Assembly (NCBI RefSeq): GCF_014698145.1
Contig: NZ_JACJSM010000005.1
Location: forward strand, 62,001-126,000
From: Oscillatoria sp. FACHB-1406
Lineage (GTDB): Bacteria; Cyanobacteriota; Cyanobacteriia; Cyanobacteriales; Spirulinaceae
DNA: 64,000 bases
Direction: 5' to 3'
The notes under the pieces are model-generated. The model made no database searches. It saw nothing but the letters and a program-made list of their open reading frames with translations, and was not told the DNA's origin. Numbering within the stretch: position 1 is the first letter of the stretch; each line of letters starts with the position of its first letter. Below are positions 3,728 through 18,136 of the stretch, in pieces. The translations under genes and the position numbers were made by a program.

Positions 3728-4477
3728 CAATTCTATCAACGATCGCACCCACTGAAAATCGCTCTCGCTTAGTGCTGGAACAGGCTGCACCGAATAATCG
3801 ATCGCTAAATCTAGAGCCGCTTCCTGGTAAACCTGTCCCAAAATCTCAGATAAATTCACAACAGGTTCTTCATCTCCTGACTGCAAAGGAAGCAAAAATT
3901 GGGGCATCGATTCGCGCACATTAAACGGGTAAAGTTCAGCTTCGGGACGCAGATTAGCCCGACTGACCAGAATGCGATAGTGCGAAGGAATCGCTTCCGC
4001 CATTGGCATAAAGTTTCCCGTTCTCAGCAAATCAATTTCAACTAAGTGAGTCGTACTATTCAAAACCTTTTGTCGCTTGGTTAGGTACTTGTCTCGACCT
4101 TCACCAACTCGTTTATTCTTGGGTGAGAGGACTTCTACAACCGTTACCACTCGCCCCGTTTTGACTTCCCGAATCTCCAGATAGCGTTCGGTAATTTCTT
4201 CAGTCAGGGGTACTGTCACCAAAATTGGCTTGCTTAAAACACCCGTTGTTACAACACAGCTTGGTTCGGACTCGGGCGTTTGTTGGAAAACAGAGGCATC
4301 TGGAATGCCAACCAGTAGAGTATCCAAGTAAACCCGTTTCTCAACGGCGGCTCGATATTTAGGTACTAATAAGGGATTAAGCGATCGCGCCAACTCAACA
4401 ATCAGCCAAGAGTGAACCTCCGACGATAATGAGGGATTTTCCAAATACGGGTTCATCCCCGGAAAACTCGGTGCCAT
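3725..4477 (-). CDS. DUF4058 family protein
   Basis: A 250-residue soluble protein of the DUF4058 family, which is abundant in cyanobacteria and has no assigned biochemical role. The diagnostic N-terminus is present (FPGMNPYLE at residues 5-13), followed by a conserved segment with EVLSPKNK near residue 115 and a DLL motif near 148. Length matches the family. There is no signal peptide or membrane segment. It converges on the restriction-modification gene with only a hairpin between them. Nothing in the context assigns a function; the fold is sometimes compared to nucleases because of the E-x-L-S-P-x-N-K stretch, but that is an inference. Confidence 0.85.
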   Translation of the reverse strand: MAPSFPGMNPYLENPSLSSEVHSWLIVELARSLNPLLVPKYRAAVEKRVYLDTLLVGIPDASVFQQTPESEPSCVVTTGVLSKPILVTVPLTEEITERYLEIREVKTGRVVTVVEVLSPKNKRVGEGRDKYLTKRQKVLNSTTHLVEIDLLRTGNFMPMAEAIPSHYRILVSRANLRPEAELYPFNVRESMPQFLLPLQSGDEEPVVNLSEILGQVYQEAALDLAIDYSVQPVPALSESDFQWVRSLIEL

Positions 4478-4518
4478 AATCGCAACAGAAGGAATGAGAA
4501 AACGGACAATGGAAAAAG

Positions 4519-4852
4519 ATGCGCTCCATCCCTACTATATCTATACCTTACAACAGTGAAGGCGATCGCCTAACTCCCTCCGTTGTAATGTTCGACCTCT
4601 TAACCCGTCAACCAATTGTTGGGCAATCATCACTCTCGGGCATCTTTCCAGGGCGTGCGCCTCACCGGAAGCCTCATCGGGCGACAAGTTAGCGTTACCG
4701 GATGGTTTCGACGCGGTAGCACGCCTTGGATTGATGTCGATACCGTTCGAGTCAACGATAAAATCGTCGTTCGCAGCGGCTATCCCGTTTGGGCTGCCGG
4801 TTTAGCGATTGTTGCCGCCCTGCGCGCCGCTTGGCTGATTTGGAACGCTTAA
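4519..4852 (+). pseudogene. Remnant of an M48-family metallopeptidase gene (C-terminal part)
   Basis: Two short overlapping frames look like pieces of one decayed gene. The first, from ATG 4519, reads MFDLLTRQPIVGQ within it and stops near 4690. The second frame (about 4616-4852) reads VTGWFRRGSTPWIDVDTVR followed by a hydrophobic helix. From memory, that G-W-F-R-R-G-x-x-P-W-(I/L)-D string with a terminal membrane helix is the C-terminal end of cyanobacterial M48 (HtpX-like) peptidases. The catalytic HExxH domain is absent. The region therefore seems to be a truncated and frameshifted relic, though a small intact gene starting at TTG 4616 cannot be excluded. Confidence 0.5.
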
Positions 4853-5006
4853 CTCGAATTCTCTGGCGAGCTTTACGACTATTGAAATTCTCTTGTTCTG
4901 GAGTCAGTTTCCCGAATCTTGGTTATCGATCGCGACCTAATAAGTTAGACATCTGGCTTTTAATATGATTTAAAGTTGATGGGGAGGAATACTTGTAATT
5001 GAGCGT

Positions 5007-7118
5007 ATGTTCCCCCCAACGTCTATGTCTATCCTGCCTAAGCCCGATCGGCAATTTAATGCTCTACAACAAGCAGCGTACCAACTCTCCTCCTGTACCG
5101 ACCAAATTTTTCGGCAGATTGAGCAGGAGCAGATATTAGCTAGCATTGTCGATCGGATTCGCTCGTCTCTAGACTTGCAGACGATCCTTACTACCACATC
5201 AACAACACTCCGTCAGTTTCTCAACGCCGATCGAGTCGGTGTATTTCGTTTCACTCCCGGCAGTGGGTGGGATGAAGGAGAGTTTGTAGCAGAAGATGTG
5301 GTCGCAGAGTTTAATTCAGCAATGGCTGCAAAAGTTTACGATCGCTGTTTTGGATCGCAGTTTGCTACCTACTATGCCCGAGGACGGGTACAAGCCGTTG
5401 CGGATATTTATAATGCTGGACTGAGTGATTGTCACGTTCAGATTCTCGAGCAATTTCAGGTTCGTGCCAATTTGATCGTTCCTGTCCTGAAAGGAGAGGA
5501 GCTATGGGGACTCTTATGTATCCATCAATGCAGCAATCCTCGACGTTGGGAGTTCTCAGAAATTGAATTTGTCCAGAAAATTGCTGCTCATTTCGCAATT
5601 GCTTTGCAGCAATCCGAGTATCTCGAACAGATTAAACATCAAGCCGCCCTGCTCGTTCAAACAACCGCTCGAGAGCGGGCTTTGCTTCGCCAGAAAGCAC
5701 TCGTCAAAATTGTCAACAAGGTGCGACAATCGTTAGCCTTTGAGGAGATTTGCCAAACTGCGACCAAAGAAGTGCGTCAGTTGCTCGAAGCCGATCGCGT
5801 TACGATCTATCGGTTTAATCCAGACTGGAGCGGTGCTTTTCTATTTGAGTCTGTGGTTGACCCGTGGAAGCCTCTGGTGGGAGCTTCACCGAGCATTGAA
5901 GATACTTACTTGATGGAGACTCAAGGAGGACGTTACGCGGCCAACGAAACCTTTGCCGTCTCAGATATTTATGCAGTGGGACACTCTGATTGCCATATCG
6001 CATTGCTAGAAGAATTTCAAGCCAAAGCTTATGCGATCGCTCCAATTTTTGAAGGCGATCGTCTGTGGGGATTACTCACCGCCTTCCAAAATTCTGCCCC
6101 CCGGCAATGGCAAACCGACGAAATCGAATTACTCGCTCAAATTGGCGAACAGTTGGGTATTGCCCTACAGCAAGCAGAATCCGTGCGACAGATTCAAGCT
6201 CAATCGATAGAACTTAAGCAGATCCTTGAAGAACTGCAACAATCTCAAATGCAGCTAGTTCAAAACGAAAAAATGGCAAGCCTAGGACAACTGGTTGCGG
6301 GAGTTGCGCACGAAATCAACAACCCAGTTAACTTTATCCACGGCAATTTGACGCATCTGAATGAATATGTCAACGATTTACTCACACTGGCTCGCTGCTA
6401 TAAACAGAGCGATCCTGAAGCAGCCCTAGATATTAAGGCACTCCAAGCGCAAGCTGAAGATCTTGATATCGACTACATCCTGGAAGATTTGCCCAAGACC
6501 CTAGCATCAATGCAGATGGGTGCGAACCGAATTCGACAGATTGTTTTATCTCTTCGCAATTTCTCTCGTCTGGATGAAGCTGCATTCAAGGCAGTGGATA
6601 TTCATGAGGGAATTGATAGTACCTTGCTGATATTGAGGCATCGAATGCTCAAAATGAACAAGGGTCAATATAAGGTTGAAATCATCAAAAACTATGGCGA
6701 CATTCCATTAGTAGAATGTTATCCGGCTCAGCTAAACCAAGTGTTCATGAATCTTATATCGAATGCACTTGACGCGCTCGAAGAAGCCATTGCCGATGGA
6801 AAACTCTGCGCAGATGACCAAGACAACTCTTCGACTCCTACCATTTGGATTAGTACAAGAATGGATGAGAAAGAGCGAGTGGAAATCTCTATTCGTGACA
6901 ACGGCATTGGGGTAAAAGGAAACAATGAAGCGAAGATATTCGATCATTTTTTTACTACGAAGCCTGTTGGAAAAGGGACGGGTTTAGGATTAGCAATTTC
7001 TCGTCAAATTATCAGTGAAAAACATTGTGGAACACTAATTTTAAACTCATCTCTTAAACAGGGCGCTGAATTTGTTATTCGTTTATCAGTTAAGCTACAA
7101 AATCAATCGATTAGCTAA
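5007..7118 (+). CDS. Sensor histidine kinase with tandem cyanobacteriochrome-type GAF domains
   Basis: A 703-residue soluble kinase: GAF1 (about 50-205), GAF2 (about 235-395), coiled linker, HisKA-like region with phospho-acceptor H435 in VAHEINNP, and a C-terminal HATPase domain (N box near 575, DNGIGV and GKGTGLGL later). GAF1 has Asp112-Arg-Cys114-Phe (a DXCF motif) and Cys142-His143, exactly 28 residues apart, the arrangement of dual-cysteine cyanobacteriochromes such as TePixJ. GAF2 has Cys329-His330 but no DXCF cysteine. Both would be expected to bind a phycobilin through the Cys before His. No response regulator is adjacent, so the partner is elsewhere. Start is ATG 5007; Met7 is an alternative. 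Kinase assignment is secure; photoreception is inferred from the cysteines. Confidence 0.88.
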   Translation: MFPPTSMSILPKPDRQFNALQQAAYQLSSCTDQIFRQIEQEQILASIVDRIRSSLDLQTILTTTSTTLRQFLNADRVGVFRFTPGSGWDEGEFVAEDVVAEFNSAMAAKVYDRCFGSQFATYYARGRVQAVADIYNAGLSDCHVQILEQFQVRANLIVPVLKGEELWGLLCIHQCSNPRRWEFSEIEFVQKIAAHFAIALQQSEYLEQIKHQAALLVQTTARERALLRQKALVKIVNKVRQSLAFEEICQTATKEVRQLLEADRVTIYRFNPDWSGAFLFESVVDPWKPLVGASPSIEDTYLMETQGGRYAANETFAVSDIYAVGHSDCHIALLEEFQAKAYAIAPIFEGDRLWGLLTAFQNSAPRQWQTDEIELLAQIGEQLGIALQQAESVRQIQAQSIELKQILEELQQSQMQLVQNEKMASLGQLVAGVAHEINNPVNFIHGNLTHLNEYVNDLLTLARCYKQSDPEAALDIKALQAQAEDLDIDYILEDLPKTLASMQMGANRIRQIVLSLRNFSRLDEAAFKAVDIHEGIDSTLLILRHRMLKMNKGQYKVEIIKNYGDIPLVECYPAQLNQVFMNLISNALDALEEAIADGKLCADDQDNSSTPTIWISTRMDEKERVEISIRDNGIGVKGNNEAKIFDHFFTTKPVGKGTGLGLAISRQIISEKHCGTLILNSSLKQGAEFVIRLSVKLQNQSIS

Positions 7119-11572: not shown

Positions 11573-12217
11573 ATGTTATTAGAACTCCAACAAATAACTG
11601 TACTGCCGGGACAGCGAATTCTGTTAAACCATATCAGTTGGTTGGAATTTGAGAAAATATTAGAGGAATTAGGGGATAATCGCGGTACAAAAGTTGCTTA
11701 CAGTAACGGAATTTTAGAAATAATGGCACCGCTTCCAGAACACGAACAAGATAAAGAACTTATTGGCGATCTAATTAAAGCGCTTTTAGAAGAAGTAGAT
11801 GTTGAGTTCTGGCCCTTGGGTTCGACCACATTTAAGAACGAGCAGATGTTACAAGGGCTTGAACCCGATAACTGCTTTTATATCAAAAACGAAGCACAAG
11901 TACGCGGCAAAAAACGACTCGATCTAACAATCGACCCGCCACCCGATTTAGCAATAGAAGTCGATGTCACTTCCCGCACCCACACTGAAATATACAAAGC
12001 CTTGAAAGTTCCCGAACTGTGGCGATTTAAACGCGGCAAGTTACAAATTAATATTTTCCAGAAAGATGAATATCTTGAAGTTGAAACCAGTCCGAGTTTT
12101 CCAGGTTTGCCCTTAAAGGAAGCTATCCCGGAATTTTTGGAGCGCTGCAAGCAGGAGGGGAGAAATAAAACCATGAAAGCGTTTCGGGAATGGGTGCGAG
12201 AAAACGAGCGAGGGTAA
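11573..12217 (+). CDS. Uma2 family endonuclease-like protein, copy 1
   Basis: A 214-residue Uma2 (DUF820) protein of the PD-(D/E)XK nuclease superfamily, a family strongly expanded in cyanobacteria and without a settled role. The core shows PPPDLAIEVDVTSRT near residues 122-136, containing the acidic residues of the predicted active site, and an upstream LDLTIDPP segment. The next gene is a close paralogue that shares most residues, including the N-terminal LPGQRILLN and C-terminal KTMKAFREWVREN strings, so this is a recent tandem duplication. No membrane or secretion signal is present. Confidence 0.9.
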   Translation: MLLELQQITVLPGQRILLNHISWLEFEKILEELGDNRGTKVAYSNGILEIMAPLPEHEQDKELIGDLIKALLEEVDVEFWPLGSTTFKNEQMLQGLEPDNCFYIKNEAQVRGKKRLDLTIDPPPDLAIEVDVTSRTHTEIYKALKVPELWRFKRGKLQINIFQKDEYLEVETSPSFPGLPLKEAIPEFLERCKQEGRNKTMKAFREWVRENERG

Positions 12218-12251
12218 AGATATTCAAAAATCATTCAATCTTTGGATAAAA

Positions 12252-12893
12252 ATGTTATTAGAACTTCAAAAAATCACGATACCGCCGGGACAGCGAATTC
12301 TGTTAAATGACATCAGTTGGTTGGAGTTTGAGAAAATATTAGAGGAATTAGGCGAGCATCGTTCCTCTCGGATCGCCTATAACGATAAGACGCTAGAAAT
12401 CATGGTTCCCCTCCCCCCTCACGAACGAGATAAGGTTCTCATTAGCAATTTCATTGAAGTGCTTTTAGAGGAACTCGATCTAGACTTTTGGTGTCTCGGC
12501 TCGACAACTTTTAAAAACGAGCAAATGTTGCAAGGAATCGAACCAGATAACTGTTATTATATTGAAAATGAAGCGTTAGTGAGGAAAAAAGATCGCTTAG
12601 ATTTAACCACTGACCCCCCGCCCGATTTAGCCCTTGAAATCGACGTAACATCTCGCACGCATCCCCATATTTACGAAGCCTTAAAAGTTCCAGAACTGTG
12701 GCGTTTCGATCGCGGCAAACTCCAGATTAACGTTCTGCGCGCGGGGAAGTATGTCGAAGTCGATACCAGTCCGACTTTTCCGGGATTCCCATTAAAAGAA
12801 GCCATCCCTGAATTTTTGGAACGCTGCCAACAAGACGGGAGAAATAAAACAATGAAGGCGTTTCGAGAGTGGGTGAGAGAGAACCAAACGTAA
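12252..12893 (+). CDS. Uma2 family endonuclease-like protein, copy 2
   Basis: A 213-residue tandem paralogue of the preceding gene, 34 bases downstream in the same direction. The predicted PD-(D/E)XK core is conserved (PPPDLALEIDVTSRT). Differences concentrate in residues 40-75 and 155-175. Both copies look intact, so each may be expressed, perhaps from a common transcript. Function unknown beyond the family. Confidence 0.9.
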   Translation: MLLELQKITIPPGQRILLNDISWLEFEKILEELGEHRSSRIAYNDKTLEIMVPLPPHERDKVLISNFIEVLLEELDLDFWCLGSTTFKNEQMLQGIEPDNCYYIENEALVRKKDRLDLTTDPPPDLALEIDVTSRTHPHIYEALKVPELWRFDRGKLQINVLRAGKYVEVDTSPTFPGFPLKEAIPEFLERCQQDGRNKTMKAFREWVRENQT

Positions 12894-15719: not shown

Positions 15720-16136
15720 ATGGATCCTCTGACAACGGCTATTATAGCAGTATCTACTTCGGTGTTAGTGAAAATTAGTGATAAAGCAAGCGACAGATTC
15801 AGTGATGCTGTAATCGATAGAACGGGTGACTTCTTAAAGCGGCTCCGACAAAAATCACCTCAGACAGTAAATGCCATAGAATTGGCTAACGAAAAACGCT
15901 TAGACTACGGTCAAGCAGTGCTAGAAGTTGAAGCAGCGGCCAAGACTGATGCCGAATTCGATCAAGCTGTTCGGGAGTTAGGAACCGCTGCTTCAGCAGA
16001 CCCAGAGCTTAGAGAAACAATTAATGCTGCTAACAAAGAGTCTTGGAATGTTGCCAATCGTTCAAAGCTAGCAGAAAAAATTAATAACCTTTACCAAGCT
16101 CCGGTTACGATTGAAAAGCAAGAAAATAATTTTTGA
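15720..16136 (+). CDS. Small helical protein of unknown function (first ORF of AT-rich island)
   Basis: A 138-residue protein beginning MDPLTTAIIAVSTSVLVKI. It is predicted helical to about residue 125, with alanine-rich heptad-like stretches (LDYGQAVLEVEAAAKT). It ends with a short beta-prone, Asn/Gln-containing tail (APVTIEKQENNF). I recall similar N-terminal modules in cyanobacterial multidomain proteins but cannot name a family with certainty. Base composition drops sharply from the neighbouring HerA gene. The stop at 16134 is a TGA, and the same reading frame continues open through the next ORF. Confidence 0.7.
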   Translation: MDPLTTAIIAVSTSVLVKISDKASDRFSDAVIDRTGDFLKRLRQKSPQTVNAIELANEKRLDYGQAVLEVEAAAKTDAEFDQAVRELGTAASADPELRETINAANKESWNVANRSKLAEKINNLYQAPVTIEKQENNF

Positions 16137-16559
16137 CTGCAGCTATCCGTCAGGGAGCAGGTAAATCCAAATCTTTACACAGATAGCTTTTGCAAACGCC
16201 TAGCTTGGATTCATAGAAATTCTCAAGGTTTGGGTCTAGAAAAGCTAGATCGTTATCACAAAGCTGAGCTTTTGAAATCTATAAAGAATGCTCGTGAAGT
16301 ACAAAATTCTGGCTTCACGAAATTCGAGATTGAAGTTCTTGTTTTAGTCGTTAGTTACTGTAGTTACTTCACTCAGAACTGGCCTTCTCCATACCCGGAA
16401 TTTGAAAAGTTTAAGAAGCAAGAATGTTACTACTCAGAAATGAAGAAATTAGTCGCTTTACAAAAAAAGATAAGGTACAAAAATGTTCGTTTAAGCTCCC
16501 TAATTAAGGATTCTTGTATATCTGAATTAGTTAAAAAAATAGAGCAATACGATGGTTGA
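16137..16559 (+). CDS. Unknown ORF continuing in frame after a TGA (second ORF of island)
   Basis: This reading frame is in phase with the preceding gene and contains no stop from the TGA at 16134 to 16557. The only start-like codon inside is TTG at 16230, with AAGG two bases before it, too close for a normal ribosome site. The encoded sequence is basic and helical with a Cys/Tyr-rich middle (VSYCSYFTQNW). It may be translated by reinitiation or readthrough, or the pair may be a single gene split by a nonsense mutation. Its last eight bases overlap the start of the next gene, so the three are probably co-transcribed. Confidence 0.45.
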   Translation: MQLSVREQVNPNLYTDSFCKRLAWIHRNSQGLGLEKLDRYHKAELLKSIKNAREVQNSGFTKFEIEVLVLVVSYCSYFTQNWPSPYPEFEKFKKQECYYSEMKKLVALQKKIRYKNVRLSSLIKDSCISELVKKIEQYDG

Positions 16560-18099
16560 TGATGTAGAACGCAGTCCGGAAATACTACATAAATACTTTG
16601 ACTTGCTCAAGTTGCACAGGACTGGAGGCATAGTAGAACTTCCGCCAGAATTGATAGAGACTTCAGAATCACTAATGCCAATTAACAGAGAATTATCATT
16701 AAATATAAAATTGACATCATCAATCAAGCAATCAATAGTATCAGACGAGAACTCAATCAAGTTAATTGGAGATAATCTATCTTCAGTCGATCAAAAAATC
16801 GTATTACTTGATAGGGAGGTAGAATCAATTAGACGAGAGATAGAATCAGTTAGTCAAGAAATGGCATCAGTTAGAGAGGCTTGGTCATCAAATAACGTAT
16901 CGCCTCACTTATTAATTATTCTACAGTTATATTTTCAAGAATTATGTAATAGATTATTAAGAGTGATTTTTGACGACTTGAATAGAGTTCTCTTAGTATT
17001 CACAGTTTTTATTATGGGGGGATTGTTGTCTAGGGTTATATTTACTATTGCCTATAATTCAATAGTTATTGCTTTTATTTTTATTTATTTATTCAAACAA
17101 TTAAATGATATCCATAAAGAATACGAAAAAATAGAGAGACAAAATTTTGTTGATTTAGAGAGAAATCGATTACGACTACAGGCAAAGCAACAAGAACTTG
17201 AGAAAAAAGAACACGAGCTTGGAGTGCGTCAACAAGAACTTGAGGAAAAGAAGTACGAGCTTGGGGTACGTCAACAAGAACTTGAAGTGAGTATAGAATC
17301 TTGTACAAAAAAACTTACGGAGCTTGAGCGAATTTATGTACAATTATTTGAAGCACGTCAAAATCAGTTTGATAAATTAAAAGACGATGAACGAGAGTGC
17401 AAAAAAACATCGCTACAAGACTTGGAAGAAAAGGTAAAGAAATGGCTAGACCAAGATAAAGCTACCCTTATTGAGCGAGCTAGAAAAACTTTGCTAATAC
17501 AAATTGGCAGAGAAACTGGAGAACTTAATACTCTTCAAACTAGCCAACCTATTCAAAGATTATTTGGAGTGAGTTCCCGGCACGTTGAGCGAATACAAGA
17601 TAGGATTGAGACTGATAGGGATAGCAATTTATTTCAAAGGAAGGATGTCAAAGGATTGTTGATAAGCAATCGAGATTTCAGAAGAGACTGTGGTCTTGAT
17701 GGCAAGAAAAGATATGGTATATATGAATTTACTGCTATCTTCTTTTGTGCAAATTTTCTTGCCTATTATAGATGCTATTGGAACTTTATAAGACACCTTA
17801 CAGTAGACGAAGAAATTTGTGAGATTCTTTATGACACTATTGTATCTGTCAAGGTAAAAGAAAGGTCTTCAACTAACCTCAAAGACCATAAATTAAAAAG
17901 AATATACAAAGAATTTTTATCTATTGCTACTATGGATGGCAAAATATTTTCCTTCCGAATAGACGAGGATAGAACAGAGCGAACTGAAACTGAAGGTAGT
18001 TTGCGTGAATCTCAAATTGAGGAGGCTGGACGGACTATTAGGGATATTTTAAGGCAAAGGCGAATAGATGTGATGAGAACTAAGAATGCAGATAGCTGA
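16552..18099 (+). CDS. Membrane coiled-coil protein of unknown function (third ORF of island)
   Basis: A 515-residue protein not matched to a named family. Visible parts: an N-terminal helical region; two adjacent membrane segments (about 146-168 and 170-183); a charged coiled coil (about 185-345) with 14-residue repeats of the form QQELExKxxELGVR; and a C-terminal region (about 385-500) of alternating hydrophobic strands ending in an amphipathic helix. That last pattern suggests a bacterial PH-like fold, which is inference. The start ATG 16552 overlaps the previous ORF. The gene is markedly AT-rich compared with ilvE downstream and ends at a strong hairpin. It looks acquired and belongs with the two small ORFs before it. 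Confidence 0.75.
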   Translation: MVDDVERSPEILHKYFDLLKLHRTGGIVELPPELIETSESLMPINRELSLNIKLTSSIKQSIVSDENSIKLIGDNLSSVDQKIVLLDREVESIRREIESVSQEMASVREAWSSNNVSPHLLIILQLYFQELCNRLLRVIFDDLNRVLLVFTVFIMGGLLSRVIFTIAYNSIVIAFIFIYLFKQLNDIHKEYEKIERQNFVDLERNRLRLQAKQQELEKKEHELGVRQQELEEKKYELGVRQQELEVSIESCTKKLTELERIYVQLFEARQNQFDKLKDDERECKKTSLQDLEEKVKKWLDQDKATLIERARKTLLIQIGRETGELNTLQTSQPIQRLFGVSSRHVERIQDRIETDRDSNLFQRKDVKGLLISNRDFRRDCGLDGKKRYGIYEFTAIFFCANFLAYYRCYWNFIRHLTVDEEICEILYDTIVSVKVKERSSTNLKDHKLKRIYKEFLSIATMDGKIFSFRIDEDRTERTETEGSLRESQIEEAGRTIRDILRQRRIDVMRTKNADS

Positions 18100-18105
18100 T
18101 GAAAG

Positions 18106-18136
18106 TGTAGAGACGTTATCCTACAACGTCTCTACA
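18106..18136. terminator. Bidirectional hairpin between island and ilvE
   Basis: A perfect 12-bp stem TGTAGAGACGTT/AACGTCTCTACA with a 7-base loop lies between the convergent stops of the island's third ORF and ilvE. Symmetry would allow it to terminate both strands. Confidence 0.65.

What the first reader, a model, noticed from the sequence alone, without database searches (positions are those of the whole stretch)
15720..18099. AT-rich three-ORF island of unknown function
Seen: three ORFs in one direction, the last two overlapping by eight bases, markedly more AT-rich than the HerA ATPase gene before and ilvE after, and closed by a strong hairpin. The third encodes two membrane helices, a 14-residue-repeat coiled coil and a strand-rich C-terminus that ends in a helix. 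The first is a small helical protein with a beta-prone Asn/Gln tail. None matches a family I can name. Inference: an acquired membrane-associated cassette; the location next to a HerA-like ATPase and a methyltransferase would fit a defence or stress unit, and the tail of ORF1 might be a signalling amyloid motif.
Basis: partly seen in the sequence, partly recalled or inferred. Interest (0 to 1): 0.75.

Follow-up and report, generated by a model that had tools for sequence, protein, structure and literature searches.

The report
Leaky stop codon in immunity cassette
In this cyanobacterium two of the three 'genes' look like one gene split by a UGA stop codon that ribosomes probably read through, and the same UGA-plus-RNA-hairpin signal joins small death-effector-like proteins to NLR-like immune sensors in many other cyanobacteria, so one gene could make both the effector and its sensor.

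Summary
The cassette is real and conserved, but ORF1 and ORF2 are not two ordinary genes: they share one frame, parted by a single UGA (16134-16136). ORF1 belongs to a large cyanobacterial family of small helical proteins with N/Q-rich tails. Of 87 family genes ending in UGA, 82 continue in frame for at least 99 codons, mostly into NB-ARC/NACHT-type NTPases; of 23 ending in UAA/UAG, 3 do. After the UGA come C (78 of 87), an 8-nt spacer and a covarying hairpin that is rare in controls. Codons between UGA and the first usable start evolve as protein (pS 0.51, pN 0.22). A covariance model of the signal alone found 29 places in 21 of 194 genomes, also behind TIR and esterase-like proteins. Best reading: programmed UGA readthrough makes free effector plus a sensor- or adaptor-fused form. 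In the window the extension is an adaptor-like domain, elsewhere fused to caspase or CHAT domains, with ORF3 beside it at 17 of 17 loci examined. Caveats: no experiment; related sequences; the window's own hairpin is imperfect.

The parts
15720..16133 (+). ORF1, 138 aa: small helical protein of the 'MEPLT' family (Bell/HeLo-like by recall), probable effector half
   Evidence: family of 117 distinct genes; helical in the model (ORF1 part of low to middling confidence)
16080..16133 (+). C-terminal tail INNLYQAPVTIEKQENNF, like the family's N/Q-rich tails (N+Q 29% of the last 15 residues on average over 87 genes)
16134..16136 (+). in-frame UGA stop, followed by C: proposed readthrough site
16134..16186 (+). 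match to covariance model R1 of the readthrough signal (22.4 bits, E 6e-4 in 4 kb; the window is not in the training set); somewhat degenerate here
16145..16149 (+). 5' arm (AUCCG) of the hairpin, after an 8-nt spacer
   Evidence: (4 of 5 pairs in the window, listed as L054)
16158..16162 (+). 3' arm (CAGGU) of the hairpin
16137..16559 (+). ORF2 module, 140 codons open from the codon after UGA: helical adaptor-like domain; no ATG/GTG/TTG until codon 32
   Evidence: helical part with pLDDT mostly 80-95
16552..18099 (+). ORF3, 515 aa: two hydrophobic stretches, long predicted coiled coil, conserved C-terminal domain; partner of the ORF2 domain
   Evidence: poor structure model
18107..18135 (+). 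11-bp perfect inverted repeat GTAGAGACGTT-7-AACGTCTCTAC closing the cassette
   Evidence: read by eye; terminator function not tested

Best explanation
ORF1 and ORF2 are one gene with a programmed leaky stop. Most ribosomes stop at the UGA and make ORF1, a small effector-like helical protein with a sticky N/Q-rich tail; a minority, helped by the weak context (UGA-C) and a hairpin 8 nt downstream, read through and add the next domain. Supported by sequence statistics: one frame, UGA specificity, a conserved and covarying signal, coding constraint past the UGA. Inferred: that readthrough, not a cryptic start, makes the extension, and that a near-cognate tRNA reads the UGA. In most relatives the extension is an NB-ARC/NACHT-type NTPase, so one gene would yield abundant effector plus a rare sensor carrying the same effector and tail, a built-in nucleus for effector polymerisation. 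In the window the extension is instead an adaptor-like domain that elsewhere sits on caspase and CHAT domains, and its partner ORF3 is a probable membrane-anchored coiled-coil protein; the likely job is to bring the ORF1 assembly to the membrane and trigger cell suicide or other defence (inference only).
For: One frame through UGA. 82 of 87 UGA-ended family genes against 3 of 23 UAA/UAG-ended ones go on in frame for at least 99 codons; other UGA-ended ORFs in the same loci: 2 of 52 (at least 200 codons) or 5 of 121 (at least 120) (an earlier count without exclusions gave 1 of 54). +4 base C in 78 of 87 against 4 of 52. Codon after UGA is CTG 38, CTA 37, CCA 3 of 87; CTA and CCA are not start codons; the first ATG/GTG/TTG comes at codon 20 or later in 64 of 82. 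Hairpin perfect in 61 of 87, 2 of 23 UAA/UAG-ended family genes and 4 of 119 other UGA stops; all five pairs in 33 of 39 against a shuffled mean of 12.8, maximum 21; 32 cells with double changes (27 in the hairpin) against 10.5 shuffled, covariation 0.390 against 0.231, slid versions at most 0.207. pS/pN 0.512/0.224 from codon 16 to the first start, 0.258/0.237 in codons 1-15. Signal-only search: 29 places, 27 with an upstream ORF of at least 124 residues in phase and 28 with at least 82 open codons after the UGA; 22 of 29 outside the order. Extensions: 8 of 10 scanned are NB-ARC, NACHT or nSTAND3. ORF2 domain beside ORF3 at 17 of 17 loci.
Against: No protein or ribosome-profiling data. The window's own hairpin has one mismatch (4 of 5 pairs); the model missed it genome-wide at E 0.01 with strict filters (found in 4 kb at 6e-4); single-sequence folding is no better than shuffles (z -0.32; best of ten sequences -2.39). 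Two of the five measures, the ones least inflated by kinship, are not extreme: pairs with double change 6 against 4.5 (58 of 500 shuffles as high) and further pair types 13 against 10.8 (27 of 500). L004 has UGA-A and none of the signal that I could see. Sequences are related, so counts overstate independence (59 of 87 are less than 90% alike). That all 29 model hits begin at UGA is partly built into the model. The P-loop itself precedes the first canonical start in only 8 of 71, so starts inside the linker cannot be excluded for many genes. The death/defence role rests on domain company only.
Confidence: 0.72

Rival explanations
1. Termination-reinitiation: ribosomes stop at the UGA and restart at the adjacent CUG/GUG or at a start in the linker, giving a separate ORF2 (or NTPase) and no fusion.
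For: NTG right after UGA is common (CTG 38, GTG 3, ATG 2 of 87); L025 has a normal GTG there; in L018, L019, L021 and L011 ORF2 is a separate gene with its own start.
Against: CTA (37 of 87), CCA, ATC, ATA and, in L004 and L177, AAG also occupy that codon; reinitiation needs neither UGA rather than UAA nor a hairpin 8 nt inside the new frame; synonymous constraint and covariation lie downstream of the supposed start.
Confidence: 0.15
2. The UGA is a fixed nonsense mutation or gene boundary; ORF2 in the window is a decaying remnant and only ORF1 and ORF3 work.
For: The window's signal is imperfect; a Nostoc sphaeroides plasmid copy (L013) keeps the signal but loses the frame after 32 codons; FACHB-63 shows only a C-terminal piece of ORF3 (L003).
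Against: The same in-frame UGA recurs in six ORF2-type loci (window, L004, L020, L025, L034, L035) and the ORF2 domain is conserved in them; the family-wide pattern is not decay.
Confidence: 0.08
3. The conserved block after the UGA is a DNA recombination site for swapping C-terminal modules, not a translation signal.
For: The module behind it varies (NB-ARC, NACHT, nSTAND3, PsbP-like, ORF2 domain) while the block stays.
Against: Covariation of hairpin arms, UGA and frame retention, and rarity of the hairpin in UAA/UAG-ended relatives and its absence from five stop-free relatives are not expected of a recombination site; both roles could coexist.
Confidence: 0.04
4. UGA encodes selenocysteine.
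For: UGA with a hairpin just downstream resembles a bacterial SECIS (recalled).
Against: No SelB above the curated cut-off in the window's genome, whose 11 weaker matches I take for ordinary translation GTPases (only this one genome was tested); the site is a linker, not an evident catalytic cysteine position.
Confidence: 0.01

Closest known systems
Viral programmed stop-codon readthrough, e.g. murine leukaemia virus gag-pol (PMC4178896, abstract seen in the listing; its 8-nt spacer and pseudoknot are recalled)
   Same: two products from one frame across one stop codon, RNA structure a few nt downstream (8-nt spacer here)
   Different: UGA not UAG; bacterial cellular genes; here the hairpin is supported and a pseudoknot only weakly (P 0.01 pooled over 55 sequences)
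HET-S/NWD2 and bacterial Bell/NLR pairs with amyloid signalling motifs (BASS) (passages of PMC9815663, and of PMC8086366)
   Same: small effector with a C-terminal motif next to an NLR-type NTPase; multicellular bacteria including cyanobacteria
   Different: there the NLR is a separate gene with its own copy of the motif; here effector and NTPase share one frame across a UGA, so the motif need not be duplicated. Membership of ORF1 in Bell was inconclusive and of its tail in a BASS class not testable here
Effector-associated domain (EAD/bDLD) systems of multicellular bacteria (passages of PMC8195603 and PMC7159879)
   Same: small helical adaptor-like domain on caspase and protease effectors; the ORF2 domain behaves likewise
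   Different: no Pfam EAD model is among the matches of 9 ORF2 members; found here through a readthrough link
prfB +1 frameshift (title and abstract of PMC12421855 in the listing)
   Same: bacterial recoding at an in-frame stop
   Different: a frame change, in a release-factor gene; here the frame does not change

Membership tests
Programmed stop-codon readthrough gene | open frame continues in phase past one stop, across homologues | tested here: met
   82 of 87 UGA-ended family genes; controls 3 of 23 and 2 of 52
Programmed stop-codon readthrough gene | protein-coding constraint beyond the stop and before any canonical start | tested here: met
   pS 0.512, pN 0.224 over 34 usable pairs of 220; pairs not independent
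Programmed stop-codon readthrough gene | leaky stop context and RNA stimulator | tested here: met
   UGA-C in 78 of 87; covarying hairpin; weakness of UGA-C recalled; weaker in the window itself
Programmed stop-codon readthrough gene | C-terminally extended protein detected | not testable with these tools
   needs reporter or mass spectrometry
MuLV-type readthrough pseudoknot | second stem between hairpin loop and downstream sequence | tested here: inconclusive
   83% of cells paired; permutation P 0.034 (41 sequences), 0.12 (36), 0.045 (24) and 0.01 (55 pooled)
Bell/HeLo effector family | four-helix bundle homologous to HeLo/MLKL | tested here: inconclusive
   ORF1 helical but low confidence; weak alignment to plant NRC4/NRC3 N-termini, Z 3.4 and 2.7, among unrelated rows; no convincing Pfam match in 14 members
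BASS amyloid motif | same motif in effector C-terminus and NLR or adaptor N-terminus | tested here: inconclusive
   separate ORF2s carry an N-terminal stretch that UGA-linked ORF2s lack (by eye); no BASS model available
EAD/bDLD adaptor families in Pfam | match to a described EAD profile | tested here: not met
   0 of 9 ORF2 members with a convincing Pfam hit
Selenoprotein | SelB in the genome | tested here: not met
   0 of 1 genome over the cut-off

The most novel reading that the evidence does not exclude
A family of bacterial RNA readthrough signals (UGA-C, 8-nt spacer, hairpin, perhaps pseudoknot) controls cyanobacterial innate-immune genes: one gene makes an abundant death effector and a rare sensor- or adaptor-fused copy, so that the stop codon sets the effector-to-sensor ratio, and possibly a stress- or phage-induced change in termination arms the system.
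Probability: 0.5. Interest if true: 0.96.

Novelty: new variant of a known kind. Interest (0 to 1): 0.9.

Why it matters
Structured, conserved stop-codon readthrough is known from viruses and some eukaryotes; I found no report of a signal of this kind in bacterial chromosomal genes (searches; open-access library only). If true, many cyanobacterial NLR-like genes may be annotated as two genes with the sensor's N-terminus cut off, the effector-sensor ratio of a bacterial immune system is set by a stop codon, and sharing of one motif by effector and sensor is solved without duplicating it. It is directly testable with a simple reporter.

Tried and rejected
CUG start: rejected as the general route because CTA, CCA, ATC, ATA and AAG fill the same codon. 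Selenocysteine: no SelB over the cut-off in the one genome tested. HerA/methyltransferase as parts: not recognised, by eye, beside the five cassettes. Viral carriage: the ORF3 alignment found no relative in viral contigs; three pattern hits there (L040-L042) have upstream ORFs of 2-32 residues and extensions of 37-150 codons without a recognisable domain and look like chance; no match in phage records to the ORF1 relative P0006. Rfam: no match for the signal in six loci, and only an irrelevant sub-threshold one in the window. Structure: ORF3 model poor, not searched; the ORF1-UGA-ORF2 model gave no Foldseek match under E 1 (best 2.4), and the VIA rows (best Z 3.7) are within the noise stated for helical models; HeLo- or death-like folds are neither shown nor excluded. 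PDB sequence profiles: ORF3 and ORF2 nothing convincing; the ORF1 family profile matches designed and natural TPR proteins (best E 4e-9), which I take for helical-repeat composition, untested. PADLOC JetC hits of ORF1 and ORF3 (E 0.001 and 0.01), FlbB/RNase Y/SMC hits of ORF3 and an RNase Y N-terminal hit of one ORF3 relative are taken as coiled-coil or helical composition. Five stop-free relatives (L082, L141, L152, L154, L155) show no trace of the signal, best match 12-14 of 25 fixed bases.

Rows dropped and choices made: of 123 HMM hits, 117 were kept (duplicates and frames running off the sequence removed); 5 UGA and 2 other rows with tails under 20 or over 90 residues were left out, leaving 87 and 23. 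The window is counted once, as L054. L004's ORF1 is too divergent for the HMM and is in none of these counts. The 5 UGA-ended genes without a long extension are L102, L118, L013, L108 (only 800 bases fetched) and L080. The first search for the family used a profile that includes the tails and five UGA-linked genes; only the second was cut to the first 100 residues. The 80 regions were taken by hand, mostly in rank order, from the capped list; G693 and G826 were taken out of order because of their long open frames, and a few places (e.g. G774:C176, G750:C6) were skipped. The 39 sequences of A9 were chosen by the A-rich motif after the hairpin and by identity under 90%, not by pairing. One search used 34 of 220 pairs (those with usable divergence). 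In one search three places (L175, L178, L192) were misplaced by 3 bases; one search corrected this. One search's background did not exclude family genes and dropped frames running off; redid it.
Full report
What is there. The window is cyanobacterial by its gene content and its matches; its own genome holds the region once. However, ORF1 (15720-16136) and ORF2 (16230-16559) lie in one frame, parted by a single UGA, and the frame is open from the codon after it. Homologues show that ORF2's conserved domain starts upstream of the TTG at 16230: the segment aligned as SFCxxLxWIxxxS, or its counterpart, lies before the first ATG/GTG/TTG in the window (codon 32), L004 (22), L020 (52), L034 (30) and L035 (27).

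The cassette is conserved. A profile search with ORF3 over 84,980 species' genomes returned 8 loci, three of them seen before (L022=L011, L023=L004, L024=L003). ORF1-ORF2-ORF3 stand together in the window, L004, L020, L025, L018, L019, L021 and L011 (plasmid of Calothrix PCC 7716, typed as mobilizable), and, found by an ORF2 profile, L034 and L035. Distribution is sparse: ORF3 in 5 of 388 genomes of the class, the window's own included (two of those hits are weak or partial and one is a C-terminal piece), ORF2 in 12 of 388 of the order, the window's own included. The ORF2 domain also sits at the C-terminus of caspase-domain proteins (L027/L030, L031, L036, L037, L038; Pfam Peptidase_C14) and of a CHAT-domain protein (L039; Pfam CHAT). 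ORF2 domain and an ORF3-like gene are neighbours at 17 of 17 distinct loci examined; 9 of these were found through ORF2 alone, the other 8 came in through ORF3 or the window and so had to show it; beside the caspase genes only the end of the ORF3-like frame lies in the stretch held.

The stop codon. In the six loci where ORF1 is joined to ORF2 in frame (window, L004, L020, L025, L034, L035) the stop is always UGA and ORF2 has only a linker of about 3 to 35 codons; in the five where ORF2 has its own start (L018, L019, L021, L011, L033) it carries an added, by eye beta-prone, N-terminal stretch. ORF1's relatives on plasmids showed the same arrangement with quite different extensions: an 856-residue NB-ARC protein (L015), a 684-residue NB-ARC/TPR protein (L017), a PsbP-like protein (L012); three plasmid relatives did not: L014 (UAA, own ATG), L016 (UAG, 32 codons) and L013 (UGA, frame lost after 32 codons).

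Family-wide test. ORF1's family occurs in 154 of 388 genomes of the order. I extracted 117 distinct genes by a profile of the first 100 residues; stop and downstream sequence played no part in detection, though the first search did use the tails, and the regions fetched were mostly the best-scoring ones. 92 end in UGA, 18 in UAA, 7 in UAG. With rows of abnormal tail length removed, 82 of 87 UGA-ended and 3 of 23 other genes continue in frame for at least 99 codons (Fisher 1.8e-14; not corrected for kinship); the three exceptions (L097, L014, L098) have a usable start within 2, 5 and 11 codons. Other UGA-ended ORFs in the same loci: 2 of 52 of at least 200 codons, 5 of 121 of at least 120. The base after UGA is C in 78 of 87, against 4 of 52, where U is commonest (23 of 52); +4U is reported to reduce read-through (PMC5289835, abstract seen in the listing), and UGA-C is a weak stop by recall. 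71 of 82 extensions hold a P-loop pattern in their first 300 residues; of 10 scanned with Pfam, 8 are NB-ARC, NACHT or nSTAND3, one PsbP-like and one without a match over its cut-off.

The RNA signal. After UGA come 8 nt (mostly CUNNAGUC), then a 5-bp stem, a loop (usually 8 nt) and mostly AAAG. The stem is perfect in 61 of 87 UGA-ended family genes, 2 of 23 UAA/UAG-ended ones and 4 of 119 other UGA stops. In 39 sequences chosen without regard to pairing, 33 have all five pairs against a shuffled mean of 12.8 and maximum of 21. The count tool, on the hairpin plus a proposed pseudoknot stem, gives 32 cells with changes on both sides (27 of them in the hairpin) against 10.5 shuffled, and covariation 0.390 against 0.231, with slid controls at 0.207 or less; but the number of pairs with double change (6 against 4.5; 58 of 500 shuffles) and of further pair types (13 against 10.8; 27 of 500) are not extreme. 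Pairing of the GGGA loop with a downstream UCCC would make an H-type pseudoknot, but rests on nearly invariant bases: P 0.034 (41 sequences), 0.12 (36, stricter), 0.045 (24 from the model search, nearly independent), 0.01 (55 pooled). Folding single sequences gives no strong z-scores, -2.39 at best of ten.

Coding beyond the stop. Between codon 16 and the first ATG/GTG/TTG, pS is 0.512 and pN 0.224; in codons 1-15 both are low and alike, 0.258 and 0.237 (34 usable pairs of 220; pairs not independent). The far part thus looks translated in this frame, and the near part held at RNA level.

Signal-only search. A covariance model (53 positions), run over 194 genomes of the class, gave 29 places in 21 genomes at E 0.01 or better. 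All 29 begin at UGA, which is partly built into the model; not built in are the upstream ORF in phase (at least 124 residues in 27; exceptions L168, L176) and the open frame after it (at least 82 codons in 28; exception L173, 32; at least 220 in 27). 22 lie outside the order; two of the other seven (L165, L173) are training members under another name. The ORF1-family profile matched 20 of 29 upstream ORFs, three more having been misplaced in that call. Two upstream ORFs are TIR-domain proteins (L180, L188) and one a DUF676-type esterase (L167); the extensions tested are NACHT (L180, L167) and NB-ARC (L166). TIR and alpha/beta hydrolases are usual NLR effector domains (recalled; hydrolases also named in PMC9815663). 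The signal therefore goes with the effector-sensor junction, not with one protein family. The same model, without the window in training, scores the window at exactly 16134 with 22.4 bits, less than any of the 29 (32.9-66.1).

How it works. Supported by sequence: architecture, conservation, covariation, coding constraint. Inferred: readthrough produces a minority of effector-sensor (or, in the window, effector-adaptor) fusion from the same mRNA as free effector. The logic resembles HET-S/NWD2 and the Bell/NLR pairs with shared amyloid motifs (passages of PMC9815663; of PMC8086366), but with one gene instead of two. In the window no NTPase follows; the ORF2 domain and ORF3 would form the adaptor and membrane side, as they may beside caspase and CHAT proteins. 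That the outcome is cell death or phage defence is inference from domain company.

Literature. Eight searches of an open-access library found no report of readthrough in such genes among the papers listed; 'readthrough', 'read-through' and 'stop codon' do not occur in two relevant papers searched by term (PMC10907252, PMC7159879; passages only seen). Subscription papers were not searched.

Verdict. The finding as written is partly right; the feature underneath is more interesting: a conserved recoding signal in bacterial immune-type genes. I class it as a new variant of a known kind (programmed readthrough), since it meets the defining features of that kind that could be tested, though in a domain of life and a gene class where I know of no precedent.

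Noticed in passing
L033 (G731), 219-2010 and both ends: A stand-alone ORF2 gene with ORF3 lies between a NACHT gene (Pfam) and the start of another gene; the N-termini of these neighbours (QQELLKNISVGNNLTTGNISQ, QSILKDIQVGGNLTTGDITQ) resemble that of the ORF2 (QQSIFKNVTANDIKVENLTQ): a possible shared signalling motif (by eye).
   Followed up: partly
L031, L036, L037, L038, L027/L030: Recurrent trio: ORF3-like gene, caspase-domain protein with Q/N/G-rich middle and C-terminal ORF2 domain, then a kinase-like gene (kinase by Pfam in L027, by eye elsewhere).
   Followed up: partly
L013 against L012: Two plasmid ORF1s (130 of 145 residues identical), both with the signal; one extension runs 220 codons, in the other the frame is lost after 32: decay of the extension with the signal left in place.
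   Followed up: partly
L141 (G854), L152 (G799), L154 (G693), L155 (G826), L082 (G834): Members of the ORF1 family joined to long C-terminal parts with no stop and no trace of the RNA signal.
   Followed up: partly
L012 and L045: The same DNA (1111 of 1111 bases over 4000-5110) is annotated with the downstream gene starting at codon 77 after the UGA in one record and at codon 31 in the other.
   Followed up: partly
window 11573-12893: Two tandem, very similar genes of about 213 aa that look like Uma2/DUF820 nucleases (name recalled).
   Followed up: no
L034 170-580: An open frame on the minus strand made of about a dozen seven-residue repeats such as MQPVTLA.
   Followed up: no
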